The notes below the pieces were generated by a model. The model saw only the letters and a list, made by a program, of their open reading frames with translations, searched no databases and had not been told where the DNA came from. DNA of 64,000 bases from Natrinema halophilum. Its GTDB lineage: Archaea > Halobacteriota > Halobacteria > Halobacteriales > Natrialbaceae. The DNA lies in contig NZ_CP058601.1 in NCBI RefSeq assembly GCF_013402815.2, positions 434,001-498,000 of the forward strand, given 5' to 3'. The position numbers were made by a program, and so were the translations under genes. Shown here one piece after another: positions 13,973-56,502 of this stretch; the first letter of the stretch is position 1; each line of letters starts with the position of its first letter.

Positions 13973-14192
13973 CGGCCGTCAGCCGTCCAAGACGGGTTTA
14001 CGCGGGCGGCCCGAGGCGCGTTCCGCAATCTATTACCGCGACATCGCTCGCCGAAATTTCCGATTACGCGACTCCTGCTGTGAGTACGGCGGATGCCATA
14101 GGCCTCGACGGCTGTTACGCCCGGCTAACAGCACACTGCCTCGGGGAACCGGAGCGTGGTTTTTTCTCCATTTTGAGCGTCGAACAGGGTGT

Positions 14193-14771
14193 ATGACGAC
14201 GTTCGAACTGACGCGACGGACGGCGCTCAGGCTCGCCGGTGCGACAGTCGGAGCCGCCGGATTGACCCTCCCGGTGACCGCCCAGGAGAACGAAACCGGG
14301 GACGACGAGGACGAAGACGACGACCGCGACGGCGGTGGCACCGACCGACAACCGATCATTCTCGCAGGTCGAGCCGAGTACTGGTACGGCGTCGCCCCAG
14401 CGGAGATCGAAGGAAGAGAGAATCCGCAGTTGACCCTCGAGGCCGATCGGGAGTACGATCTCGTCTGGATCAATGCCGACGGCGAAGAACACGAACTGCT
14501 CCTCGAAAGCGACGATGGCGACGAGCTCGAGCGCTCGGATTCGTCGGCAACGGCGGGTGAGACGGTGACGATGACGTTCGAGGCGACCGAAGAGATAGCC
14601 GAGTATTTCTGCGAATACCATCCCGAGGCCATGCGGGGCGACGTCGAATTCGACGGTGGCGTTGATCACGCGGCCCACGGTCACGACCACCACGGCAATG
14701 AGACCGGTGGGTCGAACGCGACCGATGGGCAAGTGGATCACGAGACGACAGGGTCCGATGCTGGATACTGA
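14193..14771 (+). CDS. Cupredoxin-like exported protein with His-rich tail
   Basis: The 192-residue precursor has a Tat-type signal with RRTALRLAG and a hydrophobic core ending near residue 30. A run of Asp/Glu follows, then a plastocyanin-like beta domain. Likely type 1 copper ligands are His in GEEHELLL and the Cys, His and Met of FCEYHPEAM near the end of the domain. The tail is rich in His, Asp and Gly (HAAHGHDHHGNE), which could bind extra metal. Related halocyanins carry electrons outside the cell membrane. No membrane anchor or lipobox is visible, so secretion is predicted. Confidence 0.82.
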   Translation: MTTFELTRRTALRLAGATVGAAGLTLPVTAQENETGDDEDEDDDRDGGGTDRQPIILAGRAEYWYGVAPAEIEGRENPQLTLEADREYDLVWINADGEEHELLLESDDGDELERSDSSATAGETVTMTFEATEEIAEYFCEYHPEAMRGDVEFDGGVDHAAHGHDHHGNETGGSNATDGQVDHETTGSDAGY

Positions 14772-14863
14772 CTTCAGACACCCGCGCGGGGTCGGACGGA
14801 CCTGCTCTCGGACGTGAGTCGGACTGGACGGTTTTTTACCCCTCCGTCACCGAGTGCTCGGCA

Positions 14864-16732
14864 ATGACGGAGTACGATTACGAGGCCCTCGGACTCGTCG
14901 CCGGGCTGGAAATCCACCAGCAACTCGATACGGCGACGAAACTGTTCTGCCAGTGTCCGACGACCCTCCGCGAACCCGAGGAGTCGACGCGTTCGTTTTC
15001 GCGATACCTCCATCCCACTCGAAGTGAACTGGGCGAACTCGACGACGCCGCCGTCGAGGAGAGCATGGTCGAGCGCGAATTCGAGTATCTCGCCTACGAC
15101 ACGACATGTCTCGTCGAGGAGGACGACGAACCCCCCCACGAACTCGATGCCGAAGCCCTCGAGACGACGCTCGAAGTTGCGCAACTCATGAACATGAGCC
15201 CGGTCGATCAGGCCCACGTCATGCGCAAGATCGTCGTCGACGGCTCAAACACCACGGGATTCCAGCGGTCGACGCTGATCGCAACCGACGGCGAAATCGA
15301 GACCAGCGACGGCGCCGTCGGGATCGAAGATCTGCTGCTCGAGGAAGAAAGCGCACAGCGCGTTGCAGAGACGGAAGCCGGCGTCCGCTACAGCCTCGAC
15401 CGACTCGGCATTCCGCTGGTCGAGATCGGCACGAGCCCAGACATTTCCACGCCGGAACAGGCACTCGAGGCGGCCGAACGGATCGGCATGCTGCTCCGGT
15501 CGACGGGCAAAGTCAAACGCGGTCTGGGGACGATTCGTCAGGACGTGAACGTCTCCATTGCGGAGGGAGCCCGCGTCGAGATTAAAGGCGTCCAGAGCCT
15601 CGACGATATCGACGACATCGTTCGGAACGAGGTCGCGCGCCAGGTGGAACTCGTCGACATCCGGGATGAACTCGCGGACCGCGACGCATCCATCGGCAAC
15701 GTCCGGGACGTAACCGACGTCTTCGAGGACACCGAAAGCAGCGTTATCGGCGGGGCACTCGAATCGGGCGGCTCCGTGATGGCGGTTCCGCTGTTCGGCT
15801 TCGACGGTCTCGTCGGCCGCGAAATCGCCCCTGACCGACGTCTTGGAACCGAGTTCTCGGACCACGCGAAACGCCACGGGGCTGGCGGAATCTTCCACAC
15901 GGACGAGCTCCCCGCATACGGGGTCACCGAAGACGAGGTTACCGCGCTACGAGACGCGGTGGGCGTCAGCCCGGAGGACGCCGTCGCTATCGTCGCCGCA
16001 GAAACAGACACCGCCGAAACGGCAATCGATGCCGTCGCGGCGCGCGCAGCGACTGCACTCGAGGGTGTCCCCGAAGAGACCCGTGGTGCGAACGACGACG
16101 GAACGACTCGCTACCTGCGGCCGCTTCCCGGTGCAGCGCGAATGTATCCGGAGACCGACGTCCCGCCCGTCGAACCCGATCCGAGCGAGGTGTCCGAACC
16201 CGAGTTGCTGACCGAGAAGGTCGAGCGCTATCAGGACGAATACGGCCTCGGTGAGGGGCTGGCCGAACAGGTCGCGTACGGCGAATACATGCCGTTGTTC
16301 GAGGACGTCGTCGACGATGGAATCGATCCGACCCTAGCCGCGACGACCCTCGAATCGACGATGACCGAACTTCGGCGCGACGGCGTCGCGGTCGCAAACA
16401 TCTCCCGTGAACACCTCGAGGAAGTGTTCGCGATGGCCGACGGCGGCGACCTCGCGCGAGAGGGTGTTCCAGACCTGTTGCGCGCACTGGCGGATGATCC
16501 CGACCAGTCTGCCGAGGCGGCCGCCGAAGCTGCCGGACTCGGATCGGCAGGCGAGGAGGAAGTTCGGGAGGCGGTCGTCGAAGTCGTCGAACGAAACGAA
16601 GACCAGGTCGAAGCGGAGGGCATGCAGGCCTTTTCCGGATTGATGGGTGAGTGTATGGGAGCACTCCGCGGGAAAGCCGACGGCGACCTGGTGAGCGAAC
16701 TCCTGCGCGAAGAGATTCAGAAGCGAGCGTAA
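14864..16732 (+). CDS. gatE: Glutamyl-tRNA(Gln) amidotransferase subunit E
   Basis: This 622-residue protein is the archaea-specific GatE, which with GatD converts Glu-tRNA(Gln) to Gln-tRNA(Gln). The N-terminal cradle shows GLVAGLEIHQQLDTATKLFC, then the kinase-like domain with IVVDGSNTTGFQRS and GTIRQDVNVSIAEGARVEIK. An AspRS-like insertion (residues about 280-410) includes FGFDGLVGREIAPDRRLGTE, and a helical YqeY-like tail follows. The gene has its own TTTTTTACC promoter about 28-33 bases upstream. gatD is not adjacent in this window. Confidence 0.95.
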   Translation: MTEYDYEALGLVAGLEIHQQLDTATKLFCQCPTTLREPEESTRSFSRYLHPTRSELGELDDAAVEESMVEREFEYLAYDTTCLVEEDDEPPHELDAEALETTLEVAQLMNMSPVDQAHVMRKIVVDGSNTTGFQRSTLIATDGEIETSDGAVGIEDLLLEEESAQRVAETEAGVRYSLDRLGIPLVEIGTSPDISTPEQALEAAERIGMLLRSTGKVKRGLGTIRQDVNVSIAEGARVEIKGVQSLDDIDDIVRNEVARQVELVDIRDELADRDASIGNVRDVTDVFEDTESSVIGGALESGGSVMAVPLFGFDGLVGREIAPDRRLGTEFSDHAKRHGAGGIFHTDELPAYGVTEDEVTALRDAVGVSPEDAVAIVAAETDTAETAIDAVAARAATALEGVPEETRGANDDGTTRYLRPLPGAARMYPETDVPPVEPDPSEVSEPELLTEKVERYQDEYGLGEGLAEQVAYGEYMPLFEDVVDDGIDPTLAATTLESTMTELRRDGVAVANISREHLEEVFAMADGGDLAREGVPDLLRALADDPDQSAEAAAEAAGLGSAGEEEVREAVVEVVERNEDQVEAEGMQAFSGLMGECMGALRGKADGDLVSELLREEIQKRA

Positions 16733-17854: not shown

Positions 17855-18619
17855 TCACTCGTCCGCCGGCCGTTCGGTTGCTCGTCGGAGGAGCCCGAGC
17901 AGCGTGTTCGCCTCGCGTTCGGTCAGATCGGCCCGACCGAACACGCGACGTACCATCCGCATCGTCTTCTCGCGTTTTTCTTTCGGGTGATTGATTTCCT
18001 CGAGCAGCGCAGCCCACTGGTCGTAGAACCGTTCGAGAGTCGGTTCGGGTGCGCGGACGCGCTCTATGTCAGGCAACTGCGTCTCGTCTCCGAGCGTGAG
18101 CGTGCGAAGTTCGTACAAGGTAATCGTAGCGGCCTGTCCGAGATTCAAAACGGGGTAGTCGGCATTCGCGGGAATCGAGCAAATTTCGTCGATTCGGGCG
18201 AGTTCCTCGTTCGTCAATCCGACGCGCTCGCGACCGAACACGAGCGCAGTCGATGCCTCGACAGATGGCAATCGGTCGGCCAGGTCGGCCGGGGTCGTGT
18301 ACGGAAACCGAACGTGGCTGCTGTCGTCCTCGTTCGTCACTGCCGTACAGCCGACCGTATGGTAGTTCTCGACGAGGGACTCGAAACTGATCTCGTCGGC
18401 ACCGGGGAGCACGTCCTCTCGAGCGTGGCCTGCGAAGCCGTAGGCTTCGCCGTCGGGGTCGAGTTCGGGGGGATCGACCAGCAACAGTTCCTCGAAGCCG
18501 AAATTCTTCATGGCGCGAGCGATTGTCCCGACGTTTCCGGGCGACTGGGCGTCGACGACTGCAACGGCAGGCGACGTTCGATCCGTGATGTTGAGGGCGG
18601 TGGACGGTTCCTCAGTCAT
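17855..18619 (-). CDS. SpoU-family RNA 2'-O-methyltransferase, TrmJ-like
   Basis: This 254-residue protein has the SPOUT knot fold with the three SpoU motifs: motif 1 VVDAQSPGNVGTIARAMKNFG, motif 2 ALVFGRERVGLTNEE and motif 3 IPANADYPVLNLGQAATITL. The C-terminal helical extension of about 80 residues (TLERFYDQWAALLEEINH) matches TrmJ/TrmH-like enzymes. Archaeal TrmJ methylates the ribose at position 32 of tRNA. There is no TATA directly upstream; the small ORF before it overlaps its start by eight bases, suggesting a shared transcript. Confidence 0.9.
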   Translation of the reverse strand: MTEEPSTALNITDRTSPAVAVVDAQSPGNVGTIARAMKNFGFEELLLVDPPELDPDGEAYGFAGHAREDVLPGADEISFESLVENYHTVGCTAVTNEDDSSHVRFPYTTPADLADRLPSVEASTALVFGRERVGLTNEELARIDEICSIPANADYPVLNLGQAATITLYELRTLTLGDETQLPDIERVRAPEPTLERFYDQWAALLEEINHPKEKREKTMRMVRRVFGRADLTEREANTLLGLLRRATERPADE

Positions 18620-18740: not shown

Positions 18741-18891
18741 ACTCTGACTGATACTCAAAACGGGAGCGCAAAAAAGAGCGCGTTCGCGACCTAGCGTATC
18801 TCGACGGCTCCTGATTTCCGACCCGATGTCCCTCGAATTCTTATTTCTCTCTCTGCGCAAGTTGAATCATTTCGATGATCGCTGCAACACT

Positions 18892-18943
18892 TTGCGAACA
18901 GTTCCAGTTAGTAGCTGCACTTGCGAACAGTTCTAGTTACTAG
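18892..18943. repeat. Imperfect 23-bp direct repeat at the origin edge
   Basis: Copies at 18892-18914 and 18921-18943 share TTGCGAACAGTTC, then one variable base, AGTTA, one variable base and TAG. They lead straight into the AT-rich block. Confidence 0.75.
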
Positions 18944-19010
18944 TTAGTATCCTAGTTGAAACTAGTAGTTGAATGTATACTAGTTATACTATACTACAGT
19001 AATGCGATTT
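18931..19010. other. AT-rich candidate DNA-unwinding element
   Basis: About 80 bases are strikingly AT-rich for this genome and built of recurring CTAGTT, ACTAGT and TATACT words. No promoter-gene pair explains it. Position beside the orc1-linked repeats suggests an unwinding element. Confidence 0.5.
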
Positions 19011-19200
19011 GAGCATGTTAGATGCGTGTGATTATCATACACGTTAATTGAGACGGATTGTCGATCGCACTGTCTCGTTAGTTGTGTTGTGTGAGGGCGT
19101 GTGGTGGATATGATCTTCGGATGTGAAGAGAGATACTGATGAAGCGATGCTGAGAGATATTTGATGGATACAACTAACTGCCGCAATAGAAATGCCGTCC

Positions 19201-19245
19201 GACACATTTGCTGTGAATAGCTGTTCGACACATTTGCTGTGAATA
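19201..19245. repeat. Perfect 19-bp direct repeat
   Basis: GACACATTTGCTGTGAATA occurs at 19201-19219 and again at 19227-19245, a 26-base period, between the AT-rich block and the first G-string repeat. Confidence 0.85.
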
Positions 19246-19281
19246 CCGGTGCCCGTCGATCGGATCGAAACGGGTGGGACA

Positions 19282-19307
19282 CGGACACACCCCCCTCGCG
19301 TTTGTAA
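19282..19307 (-). repeat. ORB-like element 1 (inverted)
   Basis: Read on the minus strand this is TTACAAACGCGAG, a G run, then TGTGTCCG. It matches element 2 in opposite orientation. Confidence 0.7.
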
Positions 19308-19432
19308 GGCTTCTCATGGACGGAGGTGGTGATGTGGAACACACCTGTATCGCGGGTGAAAAAAGTCGTCTGTGATGGGGGTACACGTCACACTACGGAC
19401 GAATAACTTCTGCCACCACCCCCTGTTCACCG

Positions 19433-19461
19433 TTACAAACGCGACGGGGGTGTGTGTCCCG
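19433..19461 (+). repeat. ORB-like element 2
   Basis: The sequence is TTACAAACGCGAC, a G run and TGTGTGTCCCG on the plus strand. The conserved core followed by a G string resembles archaeal origin recognition boxes. Confidence 0.7.
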
Positions 19462-19618
19462 TAATCATAACCGGTTTGTCGTGAACGCGGTACGTCGACG
19501 TTCGTTCTACAATCGGTATTTCGACGCCTTCGAGAGAGACTGTCCACGTAACCGGAGCGGAACGCAGACCGTGGAACCGGCTGAAGTGTGGCGATTTCTA
19601 GATTGAGACGATCCGGCT

Positions 19619-19647
19619 TTACATCCGCGACGGGGGTGTCCGTCCCG
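19619..19647 (+). repeat. ORB-like element 3
   Basis: The sequence is TTACATCCGCGAC, a G run and TGTCCGTCCCG, the same layout as element 2 with two core changes. Confidence 0.7.
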
Positions 19648-19748
19648 CTTCTCTCCATTCCTCGGCGTTAGAAGCGCGAGGGCAGCGAACCGTTACTCTC
19701 ACAGCCACGCGCCCGCGGTTCCCGACTCGAGTCGCTCTGACGGTGAAT

Positions 19749-19760
19749 TTACATCCGCGA
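19749..19760 (+). repeat. ORB-like half element at the orc1 promoter
   Basis: TTACATCCGCGA repeats the core of element 3 but lacks the G string. It ends about ten bases before the CCTTTATTCC TATA region of orc1, where bound Orc1 could repress its own gene. Confidence 0.5.
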
Positions 19761-19810
19761 TCGATCTCCACACCTTTATTCCAATCCGGTTGGTAGGGCG
19801 GGATACTGCA

Positions 19811-21037
19811 ATGTCCGCCAACGACGATCGAGACCCGCTCTTTCGGTACGACGATCCCGTCTTCGCCGACGAGCGCCTGCTCGAGATCACGCACCTTCCA
19901 GGTCCAGACCGGATCGTCGGTCGTGACGAGCAAATGCAACGGGTTGCGGACGCCCTGAATCCGGCAATTTTCGGGAGCGAGCCCAACCACTTGTTTATAT
20001 TCGGCAAGACCGGCACCGGTAAATCGCTTATCTCGCGGTCGGTTACCCAGCGGGTGATAACCGAAGCCCAGCACGACGACGTCACCGTGAAGTACGCTTT
20101 CATCGATTGCGGCGAACAGAATACGGAGGCGTCGATAGTCAAGACGATCGCTCAGATCGTCAACGTCTCGGAGACGAGCGGGGTTACGGTCCCCGACCGC
20201 GGCCTCGGAACTGGCGATTATTACAAGCGCCTTTGGCAGGCCATCGACCACTGCACTGACGTCACCATCGTTATCCTCGACGAAATCGATATGCTCGAGG
20301 ACGACGAGGTCCTCCGAAAGCTCTCTCGGGCCGGCGAAAACCGGCGTATCTCCGACTCGAGCATCGGTATCATCGGTATCTCGAACAAGATCGATTTTCC
20401 GGATCACCTTTCGGAGCGCGTGAAATCGAGCCTCTCGCGGGATGAGCTCGTCTTTTCGCCGTACGACGCCAACCAGCTCGTCGAAATCCTCGAGAAACGT
20501 CGCGACGCCTTTCACGACGGGGTGTTATCCGACGACGTCATTCCACTGACGGCCGCTCTAGCGGCCCAGGAACACGGTGACGCACGCAAAGCGATCGACA
20601 TTCTTCGTAACGCAGGTCGGATCGCAAAGAAACGAAACGACACCCGTGTGACCGCAGATCACGTCCGAGATGCAAAGGAAAAGACCGAAGCCGACCGTTT
20701 CAACGAGTTGATCGAAGGGTCACCGCAGCAAGCGAAAGCGATACTCTATTCGTTGACTCTGCTTACCGAAAACAGCTCCGAGAAGGAGTTTCCGACGAAG
20801 ATCATCTACAACCAGTACAAGGAGGTCGCTCGCCAGCTCGACTTCGACGTCCTCTCGGAACGTCGCGTCCAGGAAATCCTCCAGGAACAAAACTTCCTCA
20901 ACGTGATCCAGTCCGAGCGAGAGGGGCGCGGTCGCGGACGCGGTGCACACGCGAAACACCGCTTGCTCGAGAACCCGTCGATCGTCAAGAAGGTCCTCCT
21001 TCGTGATTCACGGCTGGCCGTCCTCGAGGACGAGTAA
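19811..21037 (+). CDS. orc1: Orc1/Cdc6 replication initiator
   Basis: This 408-residue AAA+ ATPase recognises and opens replication origins. Visible are Walker A FGKTGTGKS, Walker B VILDEIDML, sensor 1 IGIIGISNKIDFP, sensor 2 in EHGDARKAIDILRNAG and a C-terminal winged-helix region (about residues 300-405) with YNQYKEVARQLD. The ATG at 19811 follows a CTTTATT element about 33-40 bases upstream. The G-string repeats directly upstream make it the likely cognate initiator of that origin. Haloarchaea carry several paralogues; which class this is cannot be settled here. Confidence 0.95.
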   Translation: MSANDDRDPLFRYDDPVFADERLLEITHLPGPDRIVGRDEQMQRVADALNPAIFGSEPNHLFIFGKTGTGKSLISRSVTQRVITEAQHDDVTVKYAFIDCGEQNTEASIVKTIAQIVNVSETSGVTVPDRGLGTGDYYKRLWQAIDHCTDVTIVILDEIDMLEDDEVLRKLSRAGENRRISDSSIGIIGISNKIDFPDHLSERVKSSLSRDELVFSPYDANQLVEILEKRRDAFHDGVLSDDVIPLTAALAAQEHGDARKAIDILRNAGRIAKKRNDTRVTADHVRDAKEKTEADRFNELIEGSPQQAKAILYSLTLLTENSSEKEFPTKIIYNQYKEVARQLDFDVLSERRVQEILQEQNFLNVIQSEREGRGRGRGAHAKHRLLENPSIVKKVLLRDSRLAVLEDE

Positions 21038-21090: not shown

Positions 21091-22284
21091 ATGAACAGCG
21101 TCGATGCCGCCGGCCTGGGGATCGGTGACGACTACCCGCCCCGGATTATGGGCGTGTTGAACGTCAGCGAGGAGTCCCCCTACGATCCGAGCGTCTACGA
21201 CGATCCAGGCGAGGCGGCGCGCTACGTCGACGAGGACTTGATCGGCGAAGGCGCTGACATCGTCGATATCGGCCTCGAATCGGCCAACAAGCGATTCGAT
21301 GTACTTTCCGCCGACGAAGAACTCGAACGACTTCACGTTGCACTCGAAACGATCGAGAGCGTGTCGGGGGATGCGATCTTCTCGATCGAGACGCGCTACG
21401 CTGCGGTGGCCGACGAGGCGCTCTCGCAGGGGTTCGACATGGTCAACGACATTTGCGGGTTCGCTGACCCCGCAATGCCGACCGTTTGCGAGGAGTACGA
21501 CGTTGCCGTCGCGAAGATGGCGAGTCCGCCGGACCTCGAACGGCCGGGTGCCGTCGAGGAAACCGACTGGTCATCTCGAAAGTCGCCAACGTGGGCGAGA
21601 CGTTCGGACTACGTCGACGCCGTTTTCGAAGCGCTCAAACAAAACGGACTAACGGACAAGACGATCGTCGACCCCGCTTTCGGCAGCTGGAGCGACGCGA
21701 AGACGCTCGAGGACGATCGGAACACCTTCCGTCGTCTTCGAGAATTCCGAGCGCTCGGCCAACCGATGCTCGTCTCGATCAACCGAAAGAATTTCTTGGG
21801 CGAAATAGCGGACCGCGAGACGGATAAACGGTTGCCGGTCAGTCTCGCAGCGACTTCGATGGCCATCGAGCGAGGCGCACACGTGATCAGGACCCACGAC
21901 GTGGCCGAAACGCGAGATGCGGCTCTCGTGGGTGAAGCGTTTACTGCGCGCTCGAGTGCATCCGCCGACGGAATTACGCTCTCGCAACTTGACGTCCAAT
22001 CGACGCGCGAATTCAGGTCTCAGCTTCGAGAGCGAGGTATCGATCCCGCCTTCGCTGACGAACGGCAGTCGCAATTGATAGAGATAGACAGTCTCGGTTT
22101 GGACGCGAGCGATCGATTGCGGTCGGTCGCCGCGGAACACGATACGGTCGTCCGTCGTGTGGGTGATGACCGGCTCTTACTCGTGGGTTCGACGAAAGCC
22201 GTTTCCGATATCGCAGGTCGGTTCGCCGCTGAGAGGGGGACTCTCGGTAAGCTCGGTGCGAAGCTATCAGAAGTACTGCGTTAA
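21091..22284 (+). CDS. folP: Dihydropteroate synthase family protein
   Basis: The 397-residue protein has a pterin-binding TIM barrel. Hallmarks are RIMGVLNVSEESPY near residue 20 and GADIVDIGLESAN near 55, corresponding to the DHPS motifs that bind phosphate and pterin; VNDICGF and MLVSINRKNF follow. About 100 C-terminal residues form an extra domain beyond classic DHPS length. Haloarchaea make folates, and mptE for the pterin precursor follows downstream, which supports a folate or methanopterin-like role. The start at 21091 is about 30 bases after CCTTTTTGC. Confidence 0.85.
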   Translation: MNSVDAAGLGIGDDYPPRIMGVLNVSEESPYDPSVYDDPGEAARYVDEDLIGEGADIVDIGLESANKRFDVLSADEELERLHVALETIESVSGDAIFSIETRYAAVADEALSQGFDMVNDICGFADPAMPTVCEEYDVAVAKMASPPDLERPGAVEETDWSSRKSPTWARRSDYVDAVFEALKQNGLTDKTIVDPAFGSWSDAKTLEDDRNTFRRLREFRALGQPMLVSINRKNFLGEIADRETDKRLPVSLAATSMAIERGAHVIRTHDVAETRDAALVGEAFTARSSASADGITLSQLDVQSTREFRSQLRERGIDPAFADERQSQLIEIDSLGLDASDRLRSVAAEHDTVVRRVGDDRLLLVGSTKAVSDIAGRFAAERGTLGKLGAKLSEVLR

Positions 22285-51384: not shown

Positions 51385-52857
<1,473 letters not shown>

Positions 52858-52994
52858 ACAGACCGAGACCAGGCCGTCGCGCCTGGCTCACTGCGGATCG
52901 CGGTTTTCGAACCGCACCCCACGTTCGATCGAGACAGTCACTCGACTGGCCGATCGGGCACCCTAGAACTACCGAGGCTAACACCCAACTCCCT

Positions 52995-53016
52995 GCCCGC
53001 CTCTCCTGAGGCGGGC
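52995..53016 (+). other. Spacer hairpin before tRNA-Ala
   Basis: GCCCGCCTC and GAGGCGGGC form a 9-bp stem with a TCCT loop two bases before the tRNA. It may guide processing of the 16S-tRNA spacer. Confidence 0.6.
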
Positions 53017-53018
53017 GT

Positions 53019-53090
53019 GGGCCCATAGCTCAGTGGTAGAGTGCCTCCTTTGCAAGGAGGATGCCCAGGGTTCGAATCCCTGTGGGTCCA
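53019..53090 (+). tRNA. tRNA-Ala (anticodon TGC)
   Basis: The 72-nt gene folds as a complete tRNA with acceptor GGGCCCA paired to TGGGTCC (one G-T pair), D-arm AGCTCAGTGGTAGAG and anticodon stem CCTCC/GGAGG with TGC at 53051-53053. The T-arm is CAGGGTTCGAATCCCTG. The discriminator is A and CCA is not encoded. Its place between 16S and 23S is the usual archaeal one. Confidence 0.98.
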
Positions 53091-53319
53091 TGTCTCGGAG
53101 GAAATCTCGGATCGTGTCCCTTAAGTGGGGGACGGCCCGACGATTGAATCCGAACGAACCGATGCACCACCCCGCGCAAGTGCGGGTGGGAAGGGTTAAT
53201 GCAGGCCAGCTGTCTACTGGCGTGCAGATGAGACCGTGTGTACGTGTAGTCCAGGCGTCCACTGGACCCGTTCCCGGGTCACGATGTTGCGACTTTGTCG
53301 CAACGCCGATCCGATGAAC

Positions 53320-56238
<2,919 letters not shown>

Positions 56239-56338
56239 AACTACATAACGCATTGGATCCGTGACGCGAGAACGGGTCCGGACGCAAACTGGACTACACG
56301 TACACAACGGTCAGACGCCATAGGCAACGACGCCACGA

Positions 56339-56379
56339 CCGATACTGGTATTACGACGGTTCGAATCCGTTGATCGGCA
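56339..56379 (+). other. tRNA-like processing element before 5S rRNA
   Basis: CGACGG and CCGTTG enclose a TTCGAAT loop exactly like a tRNA T-arm, and CCGAT (56339-56343) pairs with ATCGG (56373-56377) as a short acceptor stem. The element ends directly at the 5S start. In Haloferax volcanii such a tRNA-like element upstream of 5S is cut by tRNase Z and RNase P. Confidence 0.65.
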
Positions 56380-56502
56380 TTACGGCGGCCACAGCGGCGA
56401 GGTACCTCCCGTACCCATCCCGAACACGGAAGATAAGCTCGCCTGCGTTACGGTCAGTACTGGAGTGGGCGACCCTCTGGGAACCCCGTTTCGCCGCCGA
56501 CC
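56380..56502 (+). rRNA. rrf: 5S ribosomal RNA
   Basis: About 123 nt run from TTACGGCGGCCACAGCGG to the closing GCCGCC strand. The internal CCCGTACCCATCCCGAACAC is the universal 5S loop. The terminal helix GGCGGC/GCCGCC is intact. It is the last gene of the operon; no distal tRNA-Cys follows. Confidence 0.97.

What the first reader, a model, noticed from the sequence alone, without database searches (positions are those of the whole stretch)
18892..19810. Candidate replication origin with three ORB-like G-string repeats in both orientations
Element 1 (19282-19307, minus) and element 2 (19433-19461, plus) share TTACAAACGCGA plus a G run and TGTGT. Element 3 (19619-19647) repeats the layout and a half copy sits at 19749-19760 by the orc1 TATA. 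An AT-rich block and two direct-repeat pairs lie on the left. Orc1-linked ORBs with a G string are established for archaeal origins; the core motif here looks specific to this Orc1 class.
Basis: partly seen in the sequence, partly recalled or inferred. Interest (0 to 1): 0.6.

Follow-up and report, generated by a model that had tools for sequence, protein, structure and literature searches.

The report
Second chromosomal replication origin, haloarchaeon Natrinema
This stretch is almost certainly a real DNA-replication start site of a salt-loving archaeon (genus Natrinema), with at least four binding boxes for its neighbouring Orc1 initiator; it belongs to a known kind, its close relative has already been predicted and weakly tested in a sister strain, and the new part is a precise map of a widespread Orc1/box pair that also runs whole plasmids.

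Summary
Shuffles give 0.10 expected in 64 kb. Consensus: TTACA-NN-CGCGA-N4-GGTGT. Array and spacing are conserved through Natrialbaceae; all 29 Natrinema genomes carry it here. It is not oriC1: that lies at 2.797 Mb, nearly opposite. This Orc1 forms its own clade and is the only Orc gene on two Haloprofundus plasmids (48-49 kb) and four Haloferax-type replicons (195-395 kb), each with the same boxes, so the pair very probably drives replicons; it probably includes Hfx. volcanii orc6/ori-pHV3 (sequence not held). Already known: the orthologue in Natrinema sp. J7 was predicted as 'oriC9' and tested as pFJ5, giving few transformants. The left direct repeats are not conserved; the AT-rich block is conserved only in composition and lies outside the box pairs. 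No local GC-skew switch. Most likely a bona fide second chromosomal origin; whether it fires in wild type is untested. Verdict: new member of a known kind.

The parts
17855..18619 (-). trmJ-type RNA methyltransferase, left border of the intergenic origin region
   Evidence: TIGR00050 above cut-off; same neighbour in Natrinema thermotolerans
18890..19060 (.). AT-rich block, candidate duplex-unwinding region lying outside the box pairs; holds direct repeat pair 18892-18914/18921-18943
   Evidence: AT-richest 100 nt of the window; most AT-rich 100 nt lies left of box 1 in 47 of 50 relatives; sequence itself not conserved
19189..19240 (+). 26-nt tandem direct repeat, lineage-specific, function not supported
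19287..19307 (-). ORB 1, exact match to family consensus
   Evidence: conserved in relatives
19341..19361 (-).
19362..19432 (.). 71-bp core between inverted ORB 2 and ORB 3: length nearly fixed (68-72 bp) in most Natrialbaceae while sequence varies; GGGGG at 19377-19381 and CCACCACCCCC at 19413-19423, of which only the C-rich tract is kept in relatives
19433..19453 (+). ORB 3, exact match
19619..19639 (+). ORB 4, exact match
19668..19688 (+). degenerate ORB-like element TTAGAAGCGCGAGGGCAGCG at about -143
   Evidence: conserved block in Natrinema; found with 2-3 mismatches in many relatives
19748..19760 (+). half box TTTACATCCGCGA just upstream of the putative TATA (TTTATT 19775-19780) of orc1; possible autoregulatory site
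   Evidence: near-invariant 19749-19800 in Natrinema alignment
19811..21037 (+). orc1/cdc6 initiator gene, 408 aa (AAA+, lid, winged helix)
   Evidence: Pfam PF22703, PF09079; TIGR02928 414 bits; nearest solved structures 2v1u and S. solfataricus Cdc6-1 2qby_A
21091..22284 (+). folP dihydropteroate synthase, downstream neighbour
   Evidence: TIGR01496 above cut-off
51385..56502 (+). rRNA operon (16S, tRNA-Ala, 23S, 5S) about 32 kb downstream, transcribed away from the origin
   Evidence: Rfam; same arrangement in all genomes where both lie on one contig

Best explanation
The 1.2-kb gap between trmJ and orc1 is an Orc1-dependent chromosomal replication origin, the second one of this Natrinema chromosome beside the canonical oriC1. 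The neighbouring Orc1 monomers bind four boxes (TTACA-NN-CGCGA-N4-GGTGT) set in two outward-facing groups (two minus, two plus); the winged helix reads the TTACA..CGCGA half and the AAA+ domain the GGTGT side (inferred from solved relatives). Orc1 on the inverted boxes 2 and 3 loads MCM at or next to the fixed 71-bp core; strands open in the core or in the AT-rich block to the left (inferred). A half box over the orc1 promoter probably lets Orc1 repress its own gene (inferred). Shown: anatomy, conservation, Orc1/box co-occurrence, family use as sole Orc system on other replicons. Inferred: binding, loading, opening, firing in the wild-type chromosome.
For: Four boxes against 0.10 expected. Layout, 54-bp and about 71-bp spacings kept across about 50 Natrialbaceae while the intervening sequence changes. 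Present in 29/29 Natrinema; Orc1 orthologue in 86 of 292 sampled class genomes at E<=1e-150. Chromosomal orc loci at 3009k, 3732k, 624k and 1738k show no G-string repeats; only oriC1 and this locus do. Orc1 clade 100/100 with plasmid members. Sole TIGR02928 gene on Haloprofundus plasmids of 48,463 and 49,319 bp and on four Haloferax-type replicons of 195-395 kb, all with the same boxes. rRNA operon 29-39 kb downstream and co-directed away in all 16 informative Natrinema genomes, as described for active haloarchaeal origins (PMC4441112). Orthologous fragment pFJ5 gave transformants and was recovered as plasmid from Natrinema J7.
Against: pFJ5 gave fewer than 10 cfu per microgram, so autonomous replication is weak or integration not excluded; but the oriC1 fragment pFJ2 gave none, so that assay is poorly calibrated. 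No GC-skew change within 150-300 kb (rank 0.41-0.44; 0.03 at 500 kb, from about 46% of the chromosome). The AT-rich block is not between the inverted boxes as in textbook origins. No binding, marker-frequency or deletion data.
Confidence: 0.83

Rival explanations
1. It is a competent but dormant origin: the Orc1/box pair can initiate but loses to oriC1 in wild type and fires only when oriC1 is missing, as oriC4-cdc6H does in Haloferax mediterranei. (This is a sub-case of the best explanation that differs only on wild-type activity.)
For: Weak ARS of the orthologue; no local skew switch; dormancy is documented in haloarchaea (PMC4595724).
Against: The known dormant origin sits in a variable, recently acquired region; this one is in conserved context in Natrinema, nearly opposite oriC1 and next to an rRNA operon.
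Confidence: 0.22
2. The boxes serve only to regulate orc1 or to titrate Orc1 and there is no initiation here.
For: Half box over the promoter; an ORB-rich region without origin activity exists downstream of H. hispanica oriC2 (PMC3936714).
Against: Inverted pair with fixed core spacing, 470-520 bp from the gene; no other box cluster in the genome for Orc1 to act on; sole-Orc plasmids keep the same kind of array.
Confidence: 0.06
3. It is the scar of an integrated plasmid that used this Orc1 system (pHV3-like), now decaying.
For: The family is on plasmids or megaplasmids in Haloferax, Haloprofundus, Haladaptatus and some Natrialbaceae.
Against: Boxes and the 97-99% identical Orc1 are strongly conserved across the genus; the chromosomal context is stable. 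Ancient plasmid ancestry remains possible and does not conflict with present function.
Confidence: 0.05
4. Chance repeats in a GC-rich intergenic region.
For: None found.
Against: 0 of 100 shuffles reach four sites; 29/29 genomes conserve them.
Confidence: 0.005

Closest known systems
Natrinema sp. J7 predicted oriC9 / ARS-5 (plasmid pFJ5), PMC5350488
   Same: Same locus: both PCR primers match Natrinema gari JCM 14663 exactly around the orthologous trmJ-origin-orc1 segment (L036 4008 to 6330)
   Different: That work listed one ORB, did not dissect the sequence and reported fewer than 10 cfu per microgram; here four boxes, consensus and family are defined
Haloferax volcanii ori-pHV3 with orc6 (HVO_B0001)
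   Same: pHV3 has one Orc-dependent origin (PMC6063281); orc6 spans 201-1433 (1233 bp, PMC2841640), the length of the Hfx. larsenii family member; all 15 genomes of the Haloferax genus held carry the family
   Different: Extrachromosomal there, chromosomal here; the orc6 sequence itself was not held, so identity is inferred
Haloarchaeal oriC1-cdc6A (H. hispanica, H. volcanii oriC1)
   Same: Inverted ORBs with G-strings pointing outward, G/C-rich tracts inside, orc gene adjacent (PMC3936714)
   Different: Different Orc1 clade, different box 5' half, different gene neighbourhood; AT-rich block outside the box pairs
Haloarcula oriC2-cdc6E
   Same: Second chromosomal origin with an rRNA operon about 20 kb away and directed outward (PMC4441112)
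   Different: Reported as restricted to Haloarcula; orthology to the window Orc1 not tested

Membership tests
Archaeal Orc1/Cdc6-dependent origin with ORBs | orc1/cdc6 gene directly adjacent | tested here: met
   19811-21037, TIGR02928 414 bits
Archaeal Orc1/Cdc6-dependent origin with ORBs | two or more ORBs in inverted orientation | tested here: met
   two minus and two plus boxes
[quoted passage not shown]
   three of four boxes here have GGGGG; in relatives only GG at positions 17-18 is near invariant and 14-15 are G-biased; box 2 has ACAGG
[quoted passage not shown]
   inner 71 bp is 55% GC; the AT-rich block lies left of all boxes in 47 of 50 relatives
Archaeal Orc1/Cdc6-dependent origin with ORBs | Orc1 binds the ORBs; replication starts there (footprint, 2D gel, MFA, ARS) | not testable with these tools
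   only the weak pFJ5 result for the orthologue
oriC1-cdc6A family | Orc1 is the conserved Cdc6A orthologue | tested here: not met
   separate clade; Cdc6A-type protein is at C1:2.797 Mb
oriC1-cdc6A family | classic ORB TTCCAGTnGAAACGAA plus G-string, polD nearby | tested here: not met
   found at L127 (TTCCAGTTGAAACGAAGGGGTGGGGGG; DP1-like gene at 14008-15609), not here
Hfx. volcanii ori-pHV3/orc6 family | Orc1 orthologous to HVO_B0001 and same boxes | tested here: inconclusive
   Haloferax-type replicons with a single Orc carry the family; HVO_B0001 itself not held

The most novel reading that the evidence does not exclude
A single copy of exactly this chromosomal Orc1 box is carried, near a ParA module, by virus-like extrachromosomal elements of about 49-61 kb (own genome C3:1869-1889, three other Natrinema contigs and one IMG/VR contig), with the fixed positions kept and the free positions varying. 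These elements may recruit the host's second-origin Orc1 to start or time their own replication or segregation.
Probability: 0.22. Interest if true: 0.6.

Novelty: new member of a known kind. Interest (0 to 1): 0.36.

Why it matters
It gives a precise, family-wide initiator/box pair that is chromosomal in most Natrialbaceae examined and in Halorussus but runs plasmids and megaplasmids elsewhere, a clean system for asking how archaeal chromosomes gain and keep extra origins. It also supplies a box consensus with which origins of this class can be found automatically, and a specific 71-bp core and off-side AT-rich block to test where opening starts.

Tried and rejected
Looked for oriC1 identity and rejected it. 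Considered Haloferax mediterranei dormant oriC4-cdc6H as the orthologue because Hfx. larsenii has both; dropped as unlikely since the family is in all 15 Haloferax genomes held while cdc6H is reported in three species. The 987-kb N. thermotolerans replicon as a natural fission test was dropped because it holds several other Orc genes. Off-locus single-mismatch sites examined mostly overlap open frames and may be coding coincidences. No Orc1 relative in phages. Two of three IMG/VR box hits lack the ParA context and look unrelated.

Full report
What is there. The window lies on the 4.36-Mb contig C1 of a three-contig Natrinema genome (nearest named relatives are Natrinema). Between a trmJ-type methyltransferase (17855-18619, minus) and an orc1/cdc6 gene (19811-21037, plus) is a 1.2-kb gap. 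With the pattern learned from relatives, TTACANNCGCGANNNNGGTGT, there are four boxes: 19287-19307(-), 19341-19361(-), 19433-19453(+), 19619-19639(+). Dinucleotide shuffles of the window give 0.10 sites on average, never four.

Phylogenetic footprint. One genome-collection scan returned 72 loci. In about 50 Natrialbaceae the array is two minus boxes mostly 54-56 bp apart, a spacer of about 68-72 bp in most, then two plus boxes, the last near -190 to -220 from orc1 in most. In the Natrinema alignment the conserved blocks are the boxes, a C-rich tract beside box 3, a degenerate box at about -143, and the orc1 promoter with its half box; the stretch 18820-19250, with the direct repeats, is not conserved. 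Counts over 252 sites show positions 1-5, 8-12 and 17-20 near fixed, the G run at 13-16 only a bias (the sites were picked with this pattern, so the fixed positions are favoured by construction).

AT-rich block. In 47 of 50 loci (the window and 49 relatives) the most AT-rich 100 nt of the 1.4 kb upstream of orc1 lies left of box 1, mostly 150-350 bp out, although its sequence differs. In about half of the loci (25 of 49) it is also the AT-richest 100 nt of the whole fetched region. The core between the inverted boxes is only about half AT. So either the core opens, or this class opens beside the box cluster. This is left open.

Specificity. All 29 Natrinema genomes have sites with at most one mismatch, 112 of 142 at this locus by my count, against 2 for the reversed pattern. 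Other own-genome orc loci either have no such repeats or have repeats with a similar GGGGTG 3' part but other 5' halves: TTCACTCTGGAC at one C2 paralogue, ACACTTCGATAG at another, TTCCAGTTGAAACGAA at the 2.797-Mb locus. That last locus is the canonical oriC1: long Cdc6A-type Orc, a DP1-like PolD subunit gene nearby, classic ORBs. The window Orc1 is a distinct clade, 100/100 support, with its orthologues from chromosomes and plasmids.

Position. The two box-bearing orc loci of the chromosome are nearly opposite. In six genomes with known contig length the shorter arc is 0.41-0.46 of the circle. A 16S gene lies 29-39 kb downstream of this orc1 and points away in all 16 genomes where both are on one contig (the window's own operon). 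Paired origin and rRNA operon placement of this kind was described for Haloarcula (PMC4441112). Because gene order is inherited, these are not independent events.

Natural test of function. On Haloprofundus circular plasmids of 48,463 and 49,319 bp, and on four Haloferax-type replicons of 195-395 kb, the member of this family is the only TIGR02928 gene found and carries the same kind of boxes upstream. All 15 genomes of the Haloferax genus held have it. Hfx. volcanii pHV3 has a single Orc-dependent origin (PMC6063281), with orc6 = HVO_B0001 of 1233 bp (PMC2841640; PMC7776575), matching the family's 410 aa; I infer, but could not show, that ori-pHV3 belongs here.

Prior work. Primers PARS-5 of PMC5350488 match Natrinema gari exactly at both ends of the orthologous segment. 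That segment, predicted oriC9, was cloned as pFJ5: transformants were obtained and plasmid recovered, but below 10 cfu per microgram. The likely oriC1 fragment of the same study (pFJ2; forward primer matches the own oriC1 locus with 3 mismatches) gave none, so low numbers there do not exclude activity.

Skew. From stretches covering about 46% of C1 no local change of GC or keto skew is seen at the locus (ranks 0.41-0.75 at 150-300 kb); at 500 kb the GC change is in the lowest 3%. This neither supports nor refutes.

Mechanism and verdict. By analogy with solved Orc1-ORB complexes (general knowledge; nearest solved sequences 2v1u and 2qby_A) Orc1 monomers would bind each box with the AAA+ domain toward GGTGT and, from the inverted pair, load MCM. 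Function as an origin is likely (0.83, which includes the case that it is dormant in wild type, put at 0.22). It is a new, well-defined member of a known kind.

Noticed in passing
own genome C3:1869-1889 (L134), L255:1969, L256:1472, L257:1541, L261:5340: Single exact copy of the chromosomal Orc1 box on virus-like or plasmid contigs (own C3 is 57 kb with a ParA related to those of PhiCh1, ChaoS9 and phiH), followed by a conserved TATATATCGTAT-like stretch; a ParA gene is near in L134, L255, L257 and L261, and L261 also has a tyrosine-recombinase-like gene beside it.
   Followed up: partly
window 51385-56502: Complete rRNA operon with tRNA-Ala spacer about 32 kb downstream of the origin, pointing away; conserved across Natrinema.
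   Followed up: yes
L127:11466-11560: 19-bp tandem repeat (TAGACAGGCTATCCGCCCA) just downstream of the canonical oriC1 Orc gene.
   Followed up: no
L262 (CP031304.1, 987,326 bp): In Natrinema thermotolerans A29 the trmJ-orc1-folP locus is recorded on a circular 987-kb 'plasmid' with several other Orc genes; box 1 there has one C fewer in its C run than in DSM 11552. Natural chromosome split or an assembly matter.
   Followed up: partly
window 19377-19381 and 19413-19423: G-rich and C-rich tracts just inside the inverted boxes resemble the enhancer repeat of H. hispanica oriC1; only the right one is conserved in relatives.
   Followed up: partly
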